Shown here piece by piece: positions 1 to 53,597 of a stretch of 64,000 nucleotides of DNA. A program made the position numbers and the translations under genes. The DNA is from Xenococcaceae cyanobacterium MO_188.B32. GTDB taxonomy: Bacteria; Cyanobacteriota; Cyanobacteriia; Cyanobacteriales; Xenococcaceae. Numbering within the stretch: position 1 is the stretch's first letter; each line of letters opens with the position of its first letter. Below the pieces are notes generated by a model, which was not told the origin of the DNA, searched no databases, and saw only the letters and a list, made by a program, of their open reading frames with translations. The DNA is taken from NCBI GenBank assembly GCA_030065635.1, contig JASJDJ010000010.1, forward strand, positions 1 to 64,000. Direction: 5' to 3'.

Positions 1-424
1 TTCAAGCGATCGCTCCCTAAACCACCGATTCCTGTTGGCTTATTTTCCCGTTATCGATTGTCATTAAGCCCAAATTATTGAAAATAAGCCTTGGGGGGAA
101 ATCCAGTTCTGGAGGGGGTTTCAGAGATGCCGTGAAAAGTAAGCTCTAAACCTTGATTTCATGGCTTATCCGAACAGTATTGCGACTGTAGTTTATACGC
201 ACAAAAAAAACCTCAGTTTTGCGACCGAGGTTAGTTCAGGAGAAATCAATGTTGACGCGAAATGCCTAAATTGTTAGGAGCTTAACTAAAAACTCAGGCA
301 ATTGATAAAAATACGATAGGCAACTACTGGAAATAAACCTTTAAGATAGTTTGTTAATTTATGTAAAATAATGTAACAAATATTTGCGTAAATAGCAAGT
401 TTTATTTTCCAATTGGGGTGTGCT
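1..424. other. Non-coding stretch left of the IscB element
   Basis: I see no convincing gene here. The stretch holds a HIP1-type octamer near its left edge and one terminator-like hairpin (listed separately). The left boundary of the IscB element probably lies near the right side of this stretch, but I could not fix it, because these elements have no long terminal repeats. Confidence 0.5.
202..233 (-). terminator. Rho-independent terminator-like hairpin
   Basis: Read on the minus strand, an AACCTC/GAGGTT stem is followed directly by a run of eight T. No minus-strand gene is visible upstream of it inside the window, so it may end an antisense transcript or be a relic. The plus-strand reading has no T-run. 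Confidence 0.45.
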
Positions 425-701
425 TTTGGGTAAACTACTACTACTCATTAATTCAGCAGCCAGTCAGCACCCCACACTGAAGTTGGCGGGGCTTTGTGCC
501 TCCCCTTTAGTTAGCTGACCAGTCTAAGTTCTTAGCGAACTACGTTATTTAAGTCACGACACCCTTAAGTTCTTGCCAGCTTTCTGCTCTGTCGTTAACT
601 ATTAAACAGTTCTACGAGGGGTAAAACAGTGTAGTTAACCAAAAAAGCTTAAATAACATTGACGAGGCAAACATTACACATTAAGTAGAAGAGACAAAAC
701 C
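425..701 (+). ncRNA. Candidate omega-RNA (HEARO-type) of the IscB element
   Basis: About 275 non-coding bases lead directly into iscB. They contain several strong helices: GTCAGC pairs with GCTGAC around a G-rich/C-rich inner hairpin near 465-525, and GTTAACTA (594-601) pairs with TAGTTAAC (632-639). IscB genes are known to be preceded by a structured guide RNA (omega-RNA, formerly HEARO) whose guide is its 5' end. Position, length and folding fit that. The exact 5' end, and so the guide, cannot be read from sequence alone; it should lie just left of the scaffold, around 390-430. Confidence 0.6.
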
Positions 702-2102
702 ATGTCTAACTCTGTATTTGTTCTAGATACTAATAAACAACCATTAACACCCTGTACATCAGGAATGGCTCGTAGTTTACTCAAAGCTGGCAAAGCTTCG
801 GTATTTAGGCAGTATCCATTCACAATAATCTTAAAGAAAGCAGCAACTAAACAGGAGGTTAAACCATGTCAACTTAAATTAGACCCAGGTTCTAAAATCA
901 CTGGAATAGCAATACTTCAAGAGAATAAATTAATCTGGGCTGCTGAATTAGCTCATCGTGCTCAACAGATTAAAAACGACTTAAAATCTCGTCGTTCTCT
1001 CAGAAGAGGACGTAGAGACAGAAAAACTAGATACAGACAACCTAGATTTCTGAATAGAACTAGAGGGAAAGGTTGGTTAGCACCTAGCTTAGAACATCGT
1101 GTTTTAACTACTATGACCTGGGTAAGACGATTAATCAAGTTTTGTCCTATTAGTTCGATAGTAATGGAACTAGTTAGATTTGATACTCAGAAGATTAATA
1201 ATCCTGAGATATCAGGAACAGAGTATCAGAAAGGCACACTTTATCAATACAAGGTCAGAGAATATCTCCTAGAGAAATTCAATCGTACCTGCGCTTATTG
1301 TGGAGCTAAAGATACACCATTAGAGGTAGAGCATATTAAGCCCAAATCTAAAGGTGGTTCTAATCGAGTATCTAACTTAACTATTGCCTGTGTACCTTGC
1401 AATCAAGCTAAATCTAATCTAGATATTCAAGTGTTTTTATCTGACAAGCCATCGGTACTAAATCGAATCCTCAAACAAACCTTAGCACCATTAAAAGTGC
1501 GGAATGCAATGCCAGGTAAGGTCTTGAGTTCAAACGGTGGTCGCAAGCTGACGAGGAAACCTCGTCAGTTGCCATCTTCTCAAGAGAACCTAACGAATGC
1601 AGCAGCAGTCAATAGTACTCGCACTCAATTATTTAATAGTCTCAAAAGAATGGGTTTGCCTGTAACTACTGGTACTGGTGGGCAAACTAAGTTTAATCGA
1701 ACTCAGCAAGGTTTAGCTAAAGCTCATTGGTTAGATGCTGCCTGTGTTGGGGATACGCCAAAACTAGAAATAATAACTAACCAGCCTTTACTAATTAAGT
1801 GTAGTGGTCATGGCAAAAGACAGGTAATTCATGTTGATAAGTTTGGTTTTCCAAAACTGAACAAAAAAGGTGAATTAGTCAGAAAGTTAGCTTTAGTTAA
1901 AACTGTTAAAGGGTTTGAGACTGGAGATATAGTTAGAGCCGTTGTCACCAAGGGCAAGAAGGTTGGGTCTTATTTAGGTAAAGTTGCTATTCGTTCTAGT
2001 GGCTCATTTAATATCAAAACTGTCACCGAGACGGTACAAGGTATTAGCTACAAATACTGTAAACAAGTCCATCGTCAAGATGGTTATGTTTATGGGTTTT
2101 AA
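702..2102 (+). CDS. iscB: IscB RNA-guided HNH/RuvC nuclease (OMEGA system)
   Basis: This is a 466-residue IscB, the transposon-encoded relative of Cas9 that cuts DNA under guidance of an omega-RNA. Visible parts, in order: an N-terminal PLMP-type domain (here PLTP, residues 14-17), RuvC-I with Asp61 in KLDPGSK, an Arg-rich bridge helix (about 97-124), RuvC-II with Glu156, an HNH domain with CAYC (197-200), EH (210-211) and CVPCN (230-234), and RuvC-III with His342 and Asp345. All catalytic positions look present. One oddity is an extra stretch of about 33 residues (266-298) between the usual APLK and NAAAVNSTR segments. It coincides with a palindromic repeat element. The ATG at 702 has only a weak GA-rich ribosome site. 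No tnpA is present, so any movement would need a transposase in trans. Confidence 0.93.
   Translation: MSNSVFVLDTNKQPLTPCTSGMARSLLKAGKASVFRQYPFTIILKKAATKQEVKPCQLKLDPGSKITGIAILQENKLIWAAELAHRAQQIKNDLKSRRSLRRGRRDRKTRYRQPRFLNRTRGKGWLAPSLEHRVLTTMTWVRRLIKFCPISSIVMELVRFDTQKINNPEISGTEYQKGTLYQYKVREYLLEKFNRTCAYCGAKDTPLEVEHIKPKSKGGSNRVSNLTIACVPCNQAKSNLDIQVFLSDKPSVLNRILKQTLAPLKVRNAMPGKVLSSNGGRKLTRKPRQLPSSQENLTNAAAVNSTRTQLFNSLKRMGLPVTTGTGGQTKFNRTQQGLAKAHWLDAACVGDTPKLEIITNQPLLIKCSGHGKRQVIHVDKFGFPKLNKKGELVRKLALVKTVKGFETGDIVRAVVTKGKKVGSYLGKVAIRSSGSFNIKTVTETVQGISYKYCKQVHRQDGYVYGF
1494..1595 (+). repeat. Palindromic repeat element (family A) inserted in frame in iscB
   Basis: The element starts with AAAGTGCGGAATGCA (1494-1508), a word also present at about 28666 and 53392. 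It holds nested stems: TCTTGAG (1522-1528) with CTCAAGA (1579-1585), and CTGACGAGG (1548-1556) with CCTCGTCAG (1560-1568). It is translated as an extra segment of about 33 residues in IscB without breaking the frame. Confidence 0.65.
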
Positions 2103-28646: not shown

Positions 28647-29175
28647 TTAAACAATTAAGGTTTGCAAAGGTACGGAATGCACTACCACTTTCCACCTCGA
28701 ATTCAATTCGAGGTGGGTTGGCAGTTTGTTCGCCCAACGCCTTCTTAATCCCCCAGTTAGCTTATGCCACAGAATAAAAGTATAAGCACAAAATACCAAG
28801 ATAAAATGTCTTTTTAAACTCTTTTTAAGTACCCGTGCCAAATAAATTACCTAATTAAGATCTTTAGTAGGAGCGTGGTTAGTAGTTAGTACGATGTTAA
28901 AAGTATGTAAACAATTTTGCTTAGGTACTTATCTCTGACTTGATATTCTTTTAACCCTAGCATCCTTTGACTTCTCTATAAAAAACTTCGACCCAGTTTC
29001 TCTCTGAATAAGTATCAACCTTTTATCAATTAAATCCAAAGCTAATTCTGGTTTTTCTGAACTCCTTTTTTTGGGCTTTAGTTTTCAGTACATCATCGAA
29101 ACGTTTATACCATCGCTCAAAGTAAAGAGGCATAGCTTCAGGAGTTGTTTCTTTAATCAGTAGCGATCGCCTATG
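28647..29175 (-). pseudogene. IS701-type transposase remnants
   Basis: Two minus-strand fragments look like the ends of an IS701-type transposase. At about 29175-29034 a frame reads ETTPEAMPLYFERWYKRFDDVLKTKAQKKEFR before running into foreign sequence and a stop. At about 28850-28720 another frame reads RHFILVFCAYTFILWHKLTGGLRRRWANK. The catalytic middle is gone. The second fragment is cut by a family A palindromic element. Both likenesses are recalled from cyanobacterial transposases and could not be searched. Confidence 0.5.
28666..28725 (+). repeat. Palindromic repeat element (family A)
   Basis: AAAGGTACGGAATGCACT is followed by a near-perfect palindrome, CCACCTCGAATT - C - AATTCGAGGTGG (28692-28716). 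It shares its first word with the elements inside iscB (1494) and at 53392. Confidence 0.65.
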
Positions 29176-43991: not shown

Positions 43992-46900
43992 TTACCAGGG
44001 GTTGCCGATGATCGTAAAACCGCTCCAATAGTAGGGGTGCTTAAAGTCTCTGTCAGCTGACTCAGCAAGCTTGGGTGGCAGATCAAAACTTTTCTCTTCT
44101 ATCTTCAACTTACCGTTCTCCATCCGTACTTCCCCATTAATCATGTCTAACTGAGCTTGCTGTAGAGCCTCTGCTTTAATGACGCCGGTTTTTTTCAACT
44201 GCTTGTAAAAATCAGCCATCAAACCGAATGTGCCTACTTGTTCGACGAACCAAAGACTTGCTAAATTTGACTTGCTTCCTGCTTTCGCGGAAAACCCAGC
44301 AAAGCCCAACTCGGCCTCCTTATCTCCCAAAGCTGTGCGACAGGCACTCAACACTATAAGTTCTGTGAGTGGATCGCTCAATTTCAACTCACGTACCTCG
44401 TTAAGTCCCAGCTTATTGTCCCGAAATTGGATGTAGGTGTTACTGGGCTGACCAGATTCAAAGTTGGCATGGGTGGATAAGTGAACTATGCCAAACGGGT
44501 CGTCGGCGCGGGCTGCTCGTAACTTGTCCTTGGTAAATTCATTGTTGCGTAACGACTTGCCAGACCATAGTTGTGTAATCACATCCAACTCGGTGTTCAC
44601 AACTGGTAATTCTTTTTCTTTAGGGAATTTCGGGAATTCCACGGCTCCCATTGCCAAGACTGACATCTTCCTCACATCTTTATAGTGAGTATCAGTCAGT
44701 GAAAGACTGGGCATCAAGCCAACGCTGTATTTTTCCACTAGAAACTTTTGCCCATCATGGAGTGCCGCCACTGGCAGGGAGCGCAAATTGATATCCATAA
44801 CGAACACGAGATTATCAATTTCTTGTTTTTGTAACTCCTCCTCCAGAGGAGCAACTAGCCACTGATAGAGCTGTTTAGCCGGTGGTAGGTAACGCTTGGA
44901 GGGTTCGAGCTTCTTATCATTGCTAATTTTCCGAAATCGATCAGCTGCTATCTTGACTTTCTCTCGCGTTGCTCCTTCTGCCCACTTCCGAATCGGTTGT
45001 CCTTTAGAGGGTACTAGTACCAGCTCTAATCTATCTTCCGGCTGACCCTTGAAGTCTAGCGCCTCCTCTGCTGAGAGAACAGTTTGCGGGAAGAAGATGG
45101 CATAGATTAGAGCTGGTTTAATGCCAGTCGCTTGTTCAATCTGGCGCAGGGTTTCCTGGATCTCATCCAGGTTTTTGATGGGAGTTCCGCTGATGCCTAG
45201 ATAAGTCTCAAACTCACGAGTAAAGCGTGTCTCTGGGGTCAATGTAGAGAAAGGCTTGATTGCTACTGGTGAGATGGGATCTTTTTTTAGAGGTGGGATG
45301 GGTTTTTTTAGGGGGCTGATATCTCTCTCGAAAGGGGGTGGATCGACGCTAATAATCTGAATATTACCTTCTCTGAAAGTGAAGGGGAAGGACCTAAAAG
45401 GCAGAATTGAGAACTCACCACTGGTAATAGCAGCTTCCGTGCCGTTGATAGTAGCATCCCCCACCTCAAAGGGAGTCAAACCGCGTCCCCCATGTTGGAT
45501 CGTGATGTCTCCTCCCCCTTGACCGCCTGCTGTAGAAATACTGGCAATTACATCATTATCGTCTGTGAAAGTGTCAGTGGCTCGGAAAAATTGCTCGGTT
45601 GTAATATTAACGTTACCTCCTATTCCGCTGCTACCGCCTTGGGCATTGATAGAAGTAACTTCAATATCACCACTGGGATCGAGGTTAACATTGCCTCCGT
45701 TACCCACACTACCCCTGGAATCAATCGTGCCGATGGTGATGGTAGTGGAAGCATCAACGGTAATATCGCCCCCGCTGGTACCGGAGCTAGTGAGATTGCC
45801 CGTAGAAATTGTCCCACCACTGTCGAGAGTAATCCCTCCGCCTTGACCGCTGCCCTGGGAACTCGAATTAATCTCAGCACTAATACTAATAATATCCCCT
45901 GCGGCATTGAGAGCAACCGCGCCCCCGCTACCATTGGCCGCAGAAGAGTCAAGGCTACCACTAGAAGTATCGATCGTCCCCCCGCTGGTGATTCCAATCT
46001 CCCCGCCATTGCCAGTAGTGCCATTGGCTGAAGAGACAATGGCAGCCGTAGTAATGTCGCCAGCAGCTTCTAGAGAAATTGCTCCTCCATCTCCCCCGAC
46101 CGAACTAGCGTTGAGAGAGCCAGCCGTTGTCTCGATCGTTCCGCCGCTGTCGAGGGTAATCCCTCCGCCTTGACTGCTGCCCTGGGAACTCGAATTAATC
46201 TCAGCACTAATAATATCCCCTGCGGCATTGAGAGCAACCGCGCCCCCGCTACCATTGGCCGCAGAAGAGTCAAGGCTACCACTAGAAGTATCGATCGTCC
46301 CCCCGCTGGTGATTTCAATCTCCCCGCTATTGCCAGTAGTGCCATTGGCTGAAGAGATAATGTTGCCTGTGGTGATATTGCCTGACGCTTCCAGGTCAAT
46401 CGCGCCCCCATCTCCCCCTACCGAACTAGCGTTGAGAGAGCCAGCCGTTGTATCAATTGTTCCGCTGCTTTCGAGAGTAATTGCCCCACCTTGACCACTG
46501 CCCTGCGAACTTGAATCGATATCACCTGTAGTAATGTTACCAGGAGCAGTGAGAGTAATCGCTCCTCCGTCATTAGTAGAGCTAGTGTTAAGTACCCCGA
46601 TACTGGTATTGATATTGCCAGCGTTGCTGGTTATCGTAATTTCCCGACCAGGATTGGTGATATTCCCAGTAGTAATGTCTTGGTTGGCTAGTAGGGTAAT
46701 TGTAGCGTTGTCTGCTCCAGTTAAGGTAAAACCTGTGGTAGTGATTGAGCCTGAATCGGATGGCGATCGCAAAGTAACAGGATCATTAAAAGTCACATCA
46801 CCATTCAGGGTAATCTCACCGCTGCTGTTATCCCGTCCAATGATGATGGTGCCAGTTAACTTTGCTAGTTCCGTACTGTTTAGGAAAGCTGCATCTTCCC

Positions 46901-49733
46901 CACCGATTTCTAGGTCAAGATTGGGGGTTAATGGCTGCACGAGCAGCTCGTTGCCAGTTACAAAAACATTATCATCGCCAACAAGCTCAATACTGTCAGC
47001 GGTTAGGGTAATATTGCCGCTCCCCGAGTCGAGACTGCTAGTGGTTGCAGTGTCTTCAGGTTCAAAAACAACGATACCGTCACTGTTGGCACTAGTCCCA
47101 GTAAGGTTAATATTCCCGCCCCCCGAGTTAATCGGGGCTTCAACACCGATGCCAAAGCCCTCGATGCCACTGCTAGTCCCAGTGAGGCTGATATTCCCGC
47201 CCTCCGAGTTAATCGGGGCATCAACCCCGATCCCGTCACTATTGACACTAGTAGTCCCAGTGAGGCTGATATTCCCGCCCCCCGAGTTAATCGGGGCATC
47301 AACCCCGATCCCGTCCTCAACAGACGAGACACTAGTAGTCCCAGTGAGGCTGATATTCCCGCCCTCCGAGTTAATCGGGGCATCAACCCCGATCCCGTAA
47401 CCGCTACCGGAAAGAGTAATATCTCCGCTCCCCGAGTTGAGCGGGGCATTAATAGCTATGCTGTCACCTATGATGCTGGTTCCATTGACAGTGATATCCC
47501 CACCACCTGTCAAGATAGGCTGATTGATGTCGACGGTTCCCCGGTCATTGCCATCGCTGTCTGCGTTTAAAAACAAGTTCAGCAAGTCACCGCCACCATT
47601 GCTGTCAAATATCTGTCCATTGATGTTGATATTGCCAGCTGCCTCCAAGGTTAGAGTATTATTACCCGTCTCGTTGAAATCAAGGTCTGTAGCTAAGGTG
47701 ATATTTCCATCTTGGGTGCCTGTTATCCCAGTTGATACAATAACTGTGGCTCCGTTAGTCAAGGCAGCCAGGAGGTCGCTGATATCTAGGAATGCATCGT
47801 TATCGATTGCGGTAAAGATCTTAGAGCCATTCTCTTCCGTCTCATCGATATCAAAAGAGGACACGTCCGAATCAATGGTGATATTGTGCGGATCGATCAG
47901 CCAAGTCCCCCCTATACCAGCTGACGCAGAGACATTAGGAGAGTTGGTCACGTCCAAGAATCCACCACTACTGGTTTCGACAAAACCGCCATTGCCAGAA
48001 TTCACACCGCCACGGGCACTAATAGAGCCATAGACGCGGGTGGTTGCCTTTGACCAAACAATAACGCGACCGCCATTGCCATCCGTCAAGGCATCAGCAT
48101 TAATCGCCGAATCTTCACTGACAAATGTCACCTCTGCATTGGGTACTGTACCCTGACCTTTATAATCCCCACCAATTAATACCGTGCCACCGCCATTGTT
48201 CCCAGAGGCATCAATATTGGCTCCAATCACTCCCACCTTATCTCCCAAAACATTGACGCTGCCACCCGCCTCACCAGAGACATCGAGAGTACCAGAGGCG
48301 ATCGCCGTACCCCCATCGGTGGGAATAGTCGTGTCAGAATTGTTCAGTTGCACTGTGCCATCGGAACTAGCACTCAATCCTGTCTCCACATTCTCTGCTG
48401 GACCCGTCAGCAAAGTGGGTAAATCTAATACCCGAATCGGCTGCTGCTGTCCATCCGCCGTTGTTGGCAGCTCAACTTCTAAACTGAGAACCTGCCCTTC
48501 TTGGCTAATTTGCACCCGACTGGTTCCCGGTACAGCCGTTACGGTAATGTTGCCTCCTGGAGCCTCTATAGTGCCAGTATTAATAACTGTCCCGCCCATC
48601 AGAGACAGATTGTGTTCCGGTGCTACTGTCAAGTCGCCGGCATTAATAATAGTTCCTGCTTGCGTCCCCTCAAATTGAAAGGCATTAGGGTTGCTCACCA
48701 AGTTGATATAGTCATTAGCGCCAAAAGCATTAAACCAAACCTCATCAAAACCAATCCCCGTAGCGGTGGTAGCAGTGAAATCAGCAGGGACATTTAAACT
48801 AGCATTGGCTCCAAAGACGATCCCCGCTGGGTTCATCAAAAATAGGTTGGAGTTGCCACCCGTGACTTGAATCAGACCATTAATAATGGAGGGATTGCCA
48901 CCATTGATGCGAGACAAAATATTCCTAATCGAAGGATTGGACAGAAAGTTGGCAATTTGGTTGGCATCTAAACCAAACTCCTGAAAACTGTGAAACAGAT
49001 TTTTGCCATCCCCCGACAGGGTGCCGCCGTCGATGTCAAAGCGTTTGCCCTCTTGGGTCACAATGGTCATTGTCCCGTCATTGTTGGGGATAATTTGTTG
49101 GGCACGTGCTGGCATTACGCCAATAGCTGCTGCGAGGGGAAGGGCTGCCAGAAATACGCTTGCCCTTTTAGCTAATGCTGGGATTGGGTTTGGCTTCCGG
49201 CGCAAGCAGAACCGACCCCGATCGACCTCGATCTCAAAGCGGTCAGCTAACCCGCGACGCTTGAGTGCCAGAGCGATCGCCCTCTGGGAATCGCGGATTT
49301 GCTCTAGCCGTTTTCCGTAGGATATGGTTTCTGAGTGGTAGCGGTAGTAGTAGAGGGGTTTCCTAATGCGCTCGACTTGGGTGACTTCTGAAAGTTTCAA
49401 ACATAGATCGTAGTCCTGAGCACACTCAAATGATTCGTCAATACCGCCAACTTGATTAAACACAGAGCGACGGATTAGTCGGAAGTGGAAGGTCATGAAA
49501 TCCACCAGCAGTCGCTGAGGGGAGTAGGGAATCCGACAACGGCACCCATAACCCTTAACCTTCCCGGTTACGTCCATATCTAGGTAGTCAGTGTACACCA
49601 ACCCTACCTCTGGGTGGGCATCTAACAAGGCAGCCGTTTCCTTAAGTGCCGTAGGAGCCAGCAGGTCATCGCTGTCTACCCAGCCGATATAAGCCCCTCT
49701 AGTCTCGGCGATCGCCGCTTGTAAAGAGAGCAC
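43992..49733 (-). CDS. Chimeric GT2 - filamentous-haemagglutinin (TpsA) - CHAT protease protein
   Basis: A 1,913-residue protein in several blocks. Residues 1-165 are the latter part of a family 2 glycosyltransferase (GAYIGWVDSDDLLAPTAL, then FECAQDYDLCLKLSE), without the nucleotide-binding start. A signal-peptide-like segment, RASVFLAALPLAAAIG to ARAQ, lies at 189-212. The TPS secretion domain follows (GGNSNLFLMNPAGIVFGANASLNVPADF). A Gly/Ser/Thr/Asn-rich beta-helix passenger with internal repeats runs to about 1480. The C-terminal 330 residues are a CHAT caspase-like peptidase with His1755 in VHLSTHANF and Cys1798 in LSACRTALG, ending YYWSGFTIIGNPW. The start is GTG; the GT2 frame is open further upstream into the end of the TpsB gene. 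The internal signal peptide would be hidden if translated from the GT2 start. Confidence 0.8.
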   Translation of the reverse strand: MLSLQAAIAETRGAYIGWVDSDDLLAPTALKETAALLDAHPEVGLVYTDYLDMDVTGKVKGYGCRCRIPYSPQRLLVDFMTFHFRLIRRSVFNQVGGIDESFECAQDYDLCLKLSEVTQVERIRKPLYYYRYHSETISYGKRLEQIRDSQRAIALALKRRGLADRFEIEVDRGRFCLRRKPNPIPALAKRASVFLAALPLAAAIGVMPARAQQIIPNNDGTMTIVTQEGKRFDIDGGTLSGDGKNLFHSFQEFGLDANQIANFLSNPSIRNILSRINGGNPSIINGLIQVTGGNSNLFLMNPAGIVFGANASLNVPADFTATTATGIGFDEVWFNAFGANDYINLVSNPNAFQFEGTQAGTIINAGDLTVAPEHNLSLMGGTVINTGTIEAPGGNITVTAVPGTSRVQISQEGQVLSLEVELPTTADGQQQPIRVLDLPTLLTGPAENVETGLSASSDGTVQLNNSDTTIPTDGGTAIASGTLDVSGEAGGSVNVLGDKVGVIGANIDASGNNGGGTVLIGGDYKGQGTVPNAEVTFVSEDSAINADALTDGNGGRVIVWSKATTRVYGSISARGGVNSGNGGFVETSSGGFLDVTNSPNVSASAGIGGTWLIDPHNITIDSDVSSFDIDETEENGSKIFTAIDNDAFLDISDLLAALTNGATVIVSTGITGTQDGNITLATDLDFNETGNNTLTLEAAGNININGQIFDSNGGGDLLNLFLNADSDGNDRGTVDINQPILTGGGDITVNGTSIIGDSIAINAPLNSGSGDITLSGSGYGIGVDAPINSEGGNISLTGTTSVSSVEDGIGVDAPINSGGGNISLTGTTSVNSDGIGVDAPINSEGGNISLTGTSSGIEGFGIGVEAPINSGGGNINLTGTSANSDGIVVFEPEDTATTSSLDSGSGNITLTADSIELVGDDNVFVTGNELLVQPLTPNLDLEIGGEDAAFLNSTELAKLTGTIIIGRDNSSGEITLNGDVTFNDPVTLRSPSDSGSITTTGFTLTGADNATITLLANQDITTGNITNPGREITITSNAGNINTSIGVLNTSSTNDGGAITLTAPGNITTGDIDSSSQGSGQGGAITLESSGTIDTTAGSLNASSVGGDGGAIDLEASGNITTGNIISSANGTTGNSGEIEITSGGTIDTSSGSLDSSAANGSGGAVALNAAGDIISAEINSSSQGSSQGGGITLDSGGTIETTAGSLNASSVGGDGGAISLEAAGDITTAAIVSSANGTTGNGGEIGITSGGTIDTSSGSLDSSAANGSGGAVALNAAGDIISISAEINSSSQGSGQGGGITLDSGGTISTGNLTSSGTSGGDITVDASTTITIGTIDSRGSVGNGGNVNLDPSGDIEVTSINAQGGSSGIGGNVNITTEQFFRATDTFTDDNDVIASISTAGGQGGGDITIQHGGRGLTPFEVGDATINGTEAAITSGEFSILPFRSFPFTFREGNIQIISVDPPPFERDISPLKKPIPPLKKDPISPVAIKPFSTLTPETRFTREFETYLGISGTPIKNLDEIQETLRQIEQATGIKPALIYAIFFPQTVLSAEEALDFKGQPEDRLELVLVPSKGQPIRKWAEGATREKVKIAADRFRKISNDKKLEPSKRYLPPAKQLYQWLVAPLEEELQKQEIDNLVFVMDINLRSLPVAALHDGQKFLVEKYSVGLMPSLSLTDTHYKDVRKMSVLAMGAVEFPKFPKEKELPVVNTELDVITQLWSGKSLRNNEFTKDKLRAARADDPFGIVHLSTHANFESGQPSNTYIQFRDNKLGLNEVRELKLSDPLTELIVLSACRTALGDKEAELGFAGFSAKAGSKSNLASLWFVEQVGTFGLMADFYKQLKKTGVIKAEALQQAQLDMINGEVRMENGKLKIEEKSFDLPPKLAESADRDFKHPYYWSGFTIIGNPW
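45843..46520 (-). repeat. Near-identical tandem DNA repeats in the TpsA passenger (period about 321-327 bp)
   Basis: A block at about 45850-46060 recurs 321 bp further on (327 bp on the other side of a 6-bp indel) with only a few substitutions. A third, more diverged copy continues to about 46520. The repeats encode Gly/Ser-rich beta-helix turns (GGTIDTSSGSLDSSAANGSGG). Such close identity points to recent duplication or conversion. Confidence 0.85.
47095..47420 (-). repeat. Second tandem repeat block in the TpsA passenger (period about 60-75 bp)
   Basis: Five units encode a repeated GIGVDAPINSGGGNISLTGT sequence with spacer variations. At the DNA level the CCCGAGTTAATCGGGG word recurs in each unit and is itself a hairpin. 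Confidence 0.85.
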
Positions 49734-52995: not shown

Positions 52996-53597
52996 AATTT
53001 TTTGTTCACTATTCGGTAGCGAAATTAGCCAAAAGTCCTTTTTATTGTCTCAAATTTTCTCACTAAAAAAGCTATCGGCTTTCAGCTTTCAGCCTTTAGT
53101 TTTTAATTACCCGTGCTGACAATAGACCTCTTGCATAAGTCCTATAAACCTTGGTTAAGTCACCGTTACACCGCCACGGGGCGTTGCCCGAAGAGCGGAC
53201 GCAGGAGAATCCCTACCCGCCCACATCCCCTTGTAAAACGAACGGGGCATACAAGCTCTTGAATCGAATTCAAGAGACAGCCCCTCCGGTGCCTGCGGGG
53301 GAAGGGGGCTTGTAAATTTTATGTTTATGAATCCGACAGTTAACTGTTTATTCTAGCCCCATTCCCCGACCGGCGTTCCCCGGTCAAGGTAAAAGGTGCG
53401 GAATGCACTCGGGAGTGCTACGCTGAAACGGAAATCTAACGTTTTTGAGGTTTCCTCAAAAACCGTGTCCTCTTCAATTCAGCGTAGATTGGCGGTAAAA
53501 GGTAAAAGGTAAAAGAGATTAATTCCGATTAAATAAAACCGCTATCTATTAAGATGTAATTTAACAGATAGCGTAATCAAAAAAGATTCTACAAAAT
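52996..53597. repeat. Repeat-filled gap upstream of ispG
   Basis: No gene is seen. The gap contains an isolated IS5-like end word, AGACCTCTTGCATAAGTC (53124-53141), and a G+C-rich palindromic stretch (53160-53310). That stretch includes the hairpin CTCTTGAAT-CGA-ATTCAAGAG (53256-53276). A family A element follows (53392-53487). The ispG promoter on the minus strand should lie in the first 100 bases. Confidence 0.55.
53392..53487 (+). repeat. Palindromic repeat element (family A)
   Basis: It begins AAAGGTGCGGAATGCACT. The outer stem CTACGCTGAA (53418-53427) pairs with TTCAGCGTAG (53478-53487) and the inner stem GTTTTTGAGG (53441-53450) with CCTCAAAAAC (53454-53463). This is the most complete copy, and the only one here in plainly intergenic sequence. 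Confidence 0.7.

What the first reader, a model, noticed from the sequence alone, without database searches (positions are those of the whole stretch)
1494..1595. Palindromic element inserted in frame inside iscB
A repeat of about 100 bp that shares the GTGCGGAATGCA word with two other copies in the window lies within iscB. It adds about 33 residues between RuvC/HNH and RuvC-III segments without a stop. All catalytic residues remain. In-frame palindromes in protein genes are known for Rickettsia (RPE). Here one sits in an RNA-guided nuclease, itself mobile.
Basis: partly seen in the sequence, partly recalled or inferred. Interest (0 to 1): 0.68.

Follow-up and report, generated by a model that had tools for sequence, protein, structure and literature searches.

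The report
Tiny mobile DNA inside IscB gene
In this cyanobacterium a short hairpin-forming mobile DNA element, with a second one nested inside it, sits in frame in the gene of an RNA-guided DNA-cutting enzyme (IscB) and adds a 33-residue loop, and related elements of the same fixed 18-codon size occur in frame in other genome-cutting and transposon proteins.

Summary
Window 1497-1595 is a 99-nt in-frame insertion in an otherwise intact iscB (702-2102), downstream of a full-length HEARO omega RNA. Of 43 homologues readable across the site, 42 lack it; the remaining one (L042, another genus of the family) carries only the outer 54 nt. The segment is therefore two nested palindromic elements: E1 (54 nt, 18 codons; 1497-1533 plus 1579-1595) with a 45-nt hairpin element E2 (1534-1578) in its apex. 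E1 is a real dispersed family: covarying stems, 76 of 95 full-length copies exactly 55 nt (last G shared with the target), 16 of 27 family genomes, 17 of 243 in the order. It occurs in frame, in sense and antisense, in at least seven TnpB genes, several DDE transposases, a Cas3 helicase and a few cellular proteins; one TnpB shows exactly an 18-residue gap against a solved TnpB. Other IscBs carry different in-frame hairpin inserts. Best reading: an RPE-like, non-autonomous palindromic element of cyanobacteria, tolerated as a disordered loop; it works like Rickettsia RPEs but is not one of them. The mobilising enzyme and any effect on IscB are unknown. Being in frame follows from the codon-multiple length and is not evidence of benefit.

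The parts
463..677 (+). omega RNA (HEARO, RF02033) of the IscB
   Evidence: Rfam match 150.1 bits, model 1-211 of 211
702..2102 (+). iscB, 466 aa, intact ORF with RRXRR, HNH and RuvC segments
   Evidence: ORF; Pfam RRXRR 4.7e-76, HNH 1.9e-12; IscB entries are the best sequence and fold matches in the PDB
1497..1533 (+). 5' part of element E1 (mini-hairpin word GTGCGGAATGCA, left stems)
   Evidence: aligned with the uninterrupted E1 of L042; 48 of 55 positions equal once 1534-1578 is left out
1534..1578 (+). nested element E2, 45 nt, hairpin TGACGAGG-AAA-CCTCGTCA, in the apex of E1
   Evidence: absent from L042; a 45-nt excess is also found in the E1 copy at 53396
1579..1595 (+). 3' part of element E1 (right stems)
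28670..28724 (+). plain 55-nt E1 copy with no spanning ORF of 150 aa or more
   Evidence: model R1 E=2.4e-13, sequence, no spanning ORF (L111)
53396..53495 (+). E1 copy with a nested E2-like hairpin (100 nt), between GGTAAAA heptamers; no spanning ORF of 150 aa or more
   Evidence: model R1 over 100 nt, sequence, no spanning ORF (L124)

Best explanation
The segment is a small non-autonomous mobile palindromic element (E1) that inserted into iscB between the HNH part and RuvC-III, at TTAAAA^GATGC. It later received a second hairpin element (E2) in the apex of its own hairpin. E1 carries no gene. It folds into a 5' mini-hairpin (GTGC-GGAAT-GCAC) and a two-part stem, has a fixed length of 54 nt and shows no target duplication longer than one base. 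Because 54 (E1) and 45 (E2) are multiples of three and about 70% of E1 reading frames lack stops, insertion into a gene usually adds a loop of 18 (here 33) residues instead of breaking it. The Lys-coded A-rich loop between the HNH and RuvC-III helices tolerates it, so IscB most likely remains a working omega RNA-guided nuclease. SHOWN: composition, boundaries, dispersal, covarying structure, in-frame state, presence in other genes. INFERRED: movement in trans by an unidentified enzyme, the order of the two insertions, tolerance without benefit, and continued IscB activity.
For: 42 of 43 homologues lack the segment and L042 has only the outer 54 nt at the same nucleotide. E1 family: 95.3% of cells paired and covariation 0.450 against 0.127 in shuffles, 0 of 500. 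There are 20 distinct own-genome places at E<0.001 besides the iscB copy, 16 of 27 family genomes and 17 of 243 in the order. 76 of 95 full-length copies are exactly 55 nt. The TnpB in L156 shows exactly an 18-residue gap at its E1 against a solved TnpB. The insert is predicted disordered (pLDDT about 30) between two helices. The omega RNA is intact. Pairwise dN/dS is about 0.10-0.14 against insert-free relatives (dN over dS of L080, L071, L075). Other IscBs carry other hairpin inserts, L043 at the same site and L075/L057, L059 and L103 near residue 46-48.
Against: No mobilising enzyme found: 0 of 21 Y1 transposase loci of the genome carry E1 within about 1.5 kb. Target preference is weak, at most 0.38 bits per position over 46 flank pairs. 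E1 is not more open in its six frames than dinucleotide shuffles (mean 4.21 against 4.24). The window protein nests among insert-free IscBs (support 100/99) while L042 lies outside; uniting the two costs 31.6 log units, AU p 0.0498. So the shared insert needs local recombination or a repeat insertion, not plain descent. Activity is untested; the structure model is only moderate (pLDDT 66, pTM 0.49). E2 rests on two copies.
Confidence: 0.85

Rival explanations
1. The insert is an adaptive loop: the element was kept because it changes IscB (for example the HNH-RuvC linker, binding of omega RNA, or host factor contacts).
For: The iscB is under purifying selection (dN/dS about 0.1); the same loop was hit by E1 in two IscBs and by another palindrome in L043, and the residue 46-48 loop by several families. 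Of ORF frames that would be open without E1, 21 stay open with it and 3 do not, somewhat above the roughly 70% open frames seen overall; my own hand estimate by the binomial is about p 0.04, with frames not independent.
Against: Insert sequence is not conserved in protein terms; 42 of 43 relatives do without it; predicted disordered; being in frame is expected from the length alone.
Confidence: 0.12
2. The iscB is a decaying copy; the insert is simply not yet eliminated, and the protein is inactive.
For: It is a mobile, dispensable gene with relatives elsewhere in the genome (9 matches in the own genome); E1 in it differs from that of L042 at 7 of 55 positions.
Against: Full ORF, all catalytic residues, full-length omega RNA, dN/dS about 0.1, and no stop despite the drift in E1.
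Confidence: 0.12
3. The segment is native to this IscB lineage (an ancestral loop), not an insertion.
For: L042, not its sister, has part of it at the same place.
Against: 42 of 43 homologues lack it; the DNA is a member of a dispersed repeat family also found outside genes.
Confidence: 0.02
4. The window and L042 inserts are two independent insertions into a hot site, rather than a transfer of the insert between iscB copies by local recombination.
For: Different clades; the same site was hit by a different palindrome in L043; TnpBs L143 and L156 (38% identical) carry different E1 copies at the same aligned position.
Against: Both inserts share the variable stem (48 of 55 positions), which differs from the other own-genome E1 copies read here; in the 10 codons before the insert L042 is the most similar of 45 homologues, although ranked 15 of 42 over residues 1-240 and 37 of 42 over 351-466 (window chosen after seeing the data).
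Confidence: 0.35

Closest known systems
Rickettsia palindromic elements (RPE)
   Same: Short palindromic repeats, partly intergenic and partly in frame inside unrelated protein genes, adding a peptide (PMC10969869 section 13 read; PMC3733652 section 15 read).
   Different: RPEs are described there as about 150 bp, in ten families in Rickettsia; E1 is 54 nt, in cyanobacteria, with a 5' mini-hairpin and no fixed peptide (several frames and both strands used). No sequence comparison with RPE consensus was made here.
REP elements, GTAG and CGTC super-families, including cyanobacterial GTAG-12/15/16
   Same: Small palindromes, some inside genes, present in cyanobacteria (PMC3733652, section 15 and passages read).
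   Different: E1 starts GTGC or GCGC and lacks the GTAG or CGTC tag; E1 is longer (54 nt against 20-40 bp) and has three stems.
Small dispersed repeats (SDR) of Nostoc and relatives, Elhai et al. 2008
   Same: Recalled: very small mobile repeats of cyanobacteria, inserted in hairpins and other repeats, much like E2 inside E1.
   Different: Paper not held, so sequences could not be compared; E1 could be related to or part of a family described there.
MITEs such as Nezha
   Same: Non-autonomous, dispersed, gene-less.
   Different: MITEs are described as 70-300 bp with 15-30 bp TIRs (PMC3733652 passage); E1 is 54 nt, has no such TIRs and no target duplication over one base.
IscB / HEARO (OMEGA nucleases)
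   Same: The host gene is a standard IscB with its omega RNA.
   Different: Carries a 33-residue insert between HNH and RuvC-III absent from 42 of 43 relatives.

Membership tests
IscB (OMEGA nuclease) | RRXRR/RuvC-HNH protein with catalytic residues | tested here: met
   Pfam RRXRR and HNH; D61, E156, H211, H342, D345 invariant among 23 (catalytic roles recalled); best PDB matches are IscB
IscB (OMEGA nuclease) | omega RNA encoded just upstream | tested here: met
   HEARO 463-677, full model length
IscB (OMEGA nuclease) | RNA-guided DNA cleavage | not testable with these tools
   needs a bench assay
Rickettsia palindromic elements | palindromic repeat found in frame within protein genes and also between genes | tested here: met
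Rickettsia palindromic elements | size about 150 bp (as given in PMC10969869) | tested here: not met
   E1 is 54-55 nt: 76 of 95 copies exactly 55
Rickettsia palindromic elements | occurrence in Rickettsia / sequence similarity to RPE families | not tested
   no RPE consensus was fetched; model searches were in the window's own order
GTAG / CGTC REP | GTAG or CGTC tetranucleotide at one end of the palindrome | tested here: not met
   A1 copies begin GTGC or GTAC and end CGG, GGG or CAG
RAYT-associated REP/REPIN | linked Y1 (RAYT) transposase gene flanked by the repeat | tested here: not met
   0 matches in 21 Y1_Tnp loci of the own genome
MITE | 15-30 bp TIRs and target site duplication | tested here: not met
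   ends of the 55-nt copies are not inverted repeats of one another (by eye); insert adds 54 nt with at most one shared base
Cyanobacterial SDR (Elhai 2008) | sequence of a described SDR family | not testable with these tools
   paper not held; the words GTGCGGAATGCA, GCGGAATGCAC and GCGGAATGCGC occur in 12 held papers, none on cyanobacteria by title and abstract start

The most novel reading that the evidence does not exclude
E1 and similar codon-multiple hairpin elements act as a natural loop-insertion system for RNA-guided nucleases and transposases in these cyanobacteria. They repeatedly land in the A-rich, Lys-coding loops of IscB and TnpB and add 15-33 residue loops at which new contacts can evolve: a possible small-scale model of how compact OMEGA nucleases gain sequence on the way to larger effectors.
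Probability: 0.15. Interest if true: 0.78.

Novelty: new variant of a known kind. Interest (0 to 1): 0.52.

Why it matters
In-frame palindromic elements are best known from Rickettsia. Here is a distinct, apparently undescribed (within the searches made) cyanobacterial family with a fixed 18-codon length. Many of its hosts are mobile genes: TnpB, IscB, DDE transposases. It gives clean natural pairs (insert-bearing and insert-free nucleases, even a nested series of 0, 18 and 33 extra residues) to test how much an RNA-guided nuclease tolerates between HNH and RuvC-III, and whether selfish repeats can build new protein segments. It also warns annotators that loops in such proteins may be repeat DNA.

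Tried and rejected
Chance or native loop: rejected by the homologue comparison and the repeat family. A single 100-bp repeat: rejected, two nested elements. Selection for stop-free frames in E1 itself: not supported against dinucleotide shuffles (4.21 against 4.24 open frames); above pair-preserving shuffles only (3.30, highest 3.73). Link to a RAYT/Y1 transposase: none found. Plain common descent of the insert in the window copy and L042: disfavoured by the tree. Spread in plasmids: one diverged match, Chondrocystis sp. NIES-4102 plasmid, 79.6%; none with another copy. In viral contigs the 17-letter pattern is in 6 stretches, but none gives a good full-length model match (best E 4e-4 over 29 nt), so I do not count them as E1. 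A search for stand-alone E2 over the fetched sequence (807,563 bases, overlapping loci counted repeatedly) found only the two nested cases and one unrelated HIP1-like match; an earlier regex was faulty and found nothing. HisG (L224), NDK (L243) and the IscBs of L220/L228: E1 lies before the recognised domain and may be outside the true gene; not named as intragenic hosts (L220 does enter the blind count).

Rows dropped: the tree used 32 of 50 aligned IscBs (18 incomplete or near-identical ones left out). Of 100 model matches 5 were dropped (two reverse readings, three partial), leaving 95. Genome searches with the model scored only part of the first-look candidates (150 of 496; 23 of 481 for the own genome), so copy numbers are lower bounds.

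Full report
WHAT IS THERE. The ORF 702-2102 (+) encodes a 466-aa IscB with RRXRR and HNH domains, following a full-length HEARO omega RNA at 463-677 (150.1 bits). In a 50-protein alignment, 43 homologues have both flanks of the segment; 42 have no residue in it. The exception, L042 (G009, another genus of the same family), has 18 residues there. At the DNA level L042 holds a 55-nt palindromic stretch (54 nt added) at the same nucleotide, and the window has that stretch plus 45 nt inside its hairpin apex. Leaving out window 1534-1578 gives a 55-nt element equal to that of L042 at 48 of 55 positions. The segment is thus E1 (54 nt) plus nested E2 (45 nt), 1497-1595, 99 nt, 33 codons.

THE E1 FAMILY. 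Nine copies without nested element align without gaps over 55 columns. The proposed three-stem structure has 95.3% paired cells and 8 pairs changed on both sides; 0 of 500 shuffles reach the covariation score, and slid versions pair at 29-47%. A covariance model finds 20 distinct own-genome places at E<0.001 besides the iscB copy, which itself scores only E 0.56 because it is split. It finds matches in 16 of 27 family genomes at E<=0.01, 6 of 8 genera, and in 17 of 243 genomes of the order at E<=1e-4, 9 of 110 genera. Of 95 full-length copies, 76 are exactly 55 nt (the model favours that length). Left flanks tend to T-A-A-A-(A/G), but weakly. Both in iscB and in TnpB L156 the last G of the 55 can belong to the target, so the insertion adds 54 nt with no target duplication above one base.

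E1 IN OTHER GENES. Of 51 events with distinct flanks, 21 have an ORF of at least 150 aa that runs through the element with at least 30 residues on either side; 3 further frames in 2 loci are open only without it. Pfam names for hosts where E1 lies in or near the domain: TnpB (L156, L143, L233 and its kin L234/L238, L229, L223, L242, L239, the last near the C-terminus), DDE transposases (L149, L218, L226, L231, L142/L158, L136/L150, L140, L161), a Cas3 helicase (L114), UvrD-like helicase (L144), NRPS condensation domain (L155), DUF3854 (L112), KTSC (L153), glycosyltransferase (L222) and a histidine kinase (L244). L161 is from the weaker matches and is not among the 95. L145 and L221 look like TnpB by motif (recalled), but Pfam gives only E 0.023 and nothing. 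Sense and antisense orientations and different frames are used. Against a solved TnpB the L156 protein shows a gap of exactly 18 residues at its E1; L233 shows 2 plus 16 residues unmatched there, and L229 and L223 have E1 at misaligned or partly gapped stretches. L143 and L156, 38% identical, carry different E1 copies at the same aligned position, just before their GSN residues. The own genome has 57 TnpB-type zinc-ribbon matches, so mobile genes are common targets, yet they look over-represented among hosts by eye; no formal enrichment test was made.

OTHER INSERTS IN ISCB. Seven further homologues have runs of 8 or more residues absent from the window protein. Folded as single DNA strands, the inserts of L075/L057 (z -4.8), L059 (-4.4), L103 (-3.4), L078 second insert (-6.6) and L043 (-2.9) are hairpins beyond shuffles; L089 is weak (-2.0) and the first insert of L078 is not (-0.4). 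L043's lies at the same site as E1; the others cluster after residue 46-48, except L078's second (after 421) and L089 (after 220). L059 and L057 carry similar 51-nt inserts read in different frames (by eye).

HOW IT MOST LIKELY WORKS. Shown: a dispersed palindromic family of near-constant codon-multiple length, in frame in iscB, with a second element in its apex. Inferred: E1 is moved in trans by an unknown enzyme. Y1 transposases were the first candidate, but none of 21 Y1 loci in the genome carries E1 nearby. Because it adds 54 nt and on average 4.2 of 6 frames are open, it is usually harmless to a reading frame; no special selection for openness is needed or shown. In IscB the insert is predicted disordered (pLDDT about 30) between a helix ending at 261 and one starting near 292 (overall model moderate, pLDDT 66). 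Purifying selection on the gene (dN/dS about 0.10-0.14 against L080, L071 and L075, with dS above 1) and the intact omega RNA suggest a working nuclease, though selection may date from before the insertion.

HISTORY. The window IscB belongs to a group of ten IscBs (support 100/99), the other nine without this insert, from which L042 is excluded; holding the two together costs 31.6 log units, AU p 0.0498. The shared variable stem argues for one origin of the insert, with transfer by local recombination between iscB copies; the ten codons before the insert are closest to L042 among 45 homologues (a window chosen after seeing the data). A second insertion at a hot site is the alternative.

WHAT IS KNOWN. 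RPEs in Rickettsia (PMC10969869 section 13 read) and some REPs (PMC3733652 section 15 and passages read) lie in frame inside genes; GTAG REPs occur in cyanobacteria (same paper). REPIN work mentions SDRs and cites Elhai et al. for them (PMC3116915, passages). RepRanger (PMC12306157, passages) treats REPs as mostly extragenic. The closest likely prior description, Elhai et al. 2008, is not held and is recalled only. Searches for IscB with palindromic or in-frame insertion, TnpB with palindromic elements, cyanobacterial repeats and the E1 words themselves listed no paper that, by title and abstract start, describes this. So the family is undescribed in what I could search, not proven new.

VERDICT. 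What is added: it is nested; the element has a fixed 18-codon size; and it belongs to a family that repeatedly enters OMEGA nuclease and transposase genes. Function beyond tolerated insertion is unshown.

Noticed in passing
window 206-286 (-): PsrR1 photosynthesis-regulatory sRNA match (46.2 bits, cut-off 42) just upstream of the omega RNA.
   Followed up: no
L110, L135, L136, L137, L138, L150, L152: E1 copies with near-identical flanks (caaag / ttt...), several in antisense to a DDE transposase: probably one insertion multiplied by its host IS.
   Followed up: partly
L220 1501-1687 and L228: E1 lies between the 3' end of a group II intron (Rfam match in L220 only) and the start of an IscB RRXRR reading frame.
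   Followed up: partly
window 53340-53530; L113, L119, L120, L122: E1 copies inserted within GGTAAAA heptamer repeats.
   Followed up: no
L233, L234, L238: E1 in antisense directly after the IAYE motif of TnpB, probably the RuvC-II Glu (recalled), in three copies of one TnpB; in L238 the frame ends soon after.
   Followed up: partly
window 45885-46505 and 47085-47464: A 300-nt direct repeat (88%) and five 71-nt repeats, likely a repetitive protein gene.
   Followed up: no
L114: Cas3 helicase gene of the own genome with an in-frame antisense E1-like element (E 1.4e-10) between the DEAD motif region and the SAT motif (motif names recalled).
   Followed up: partly
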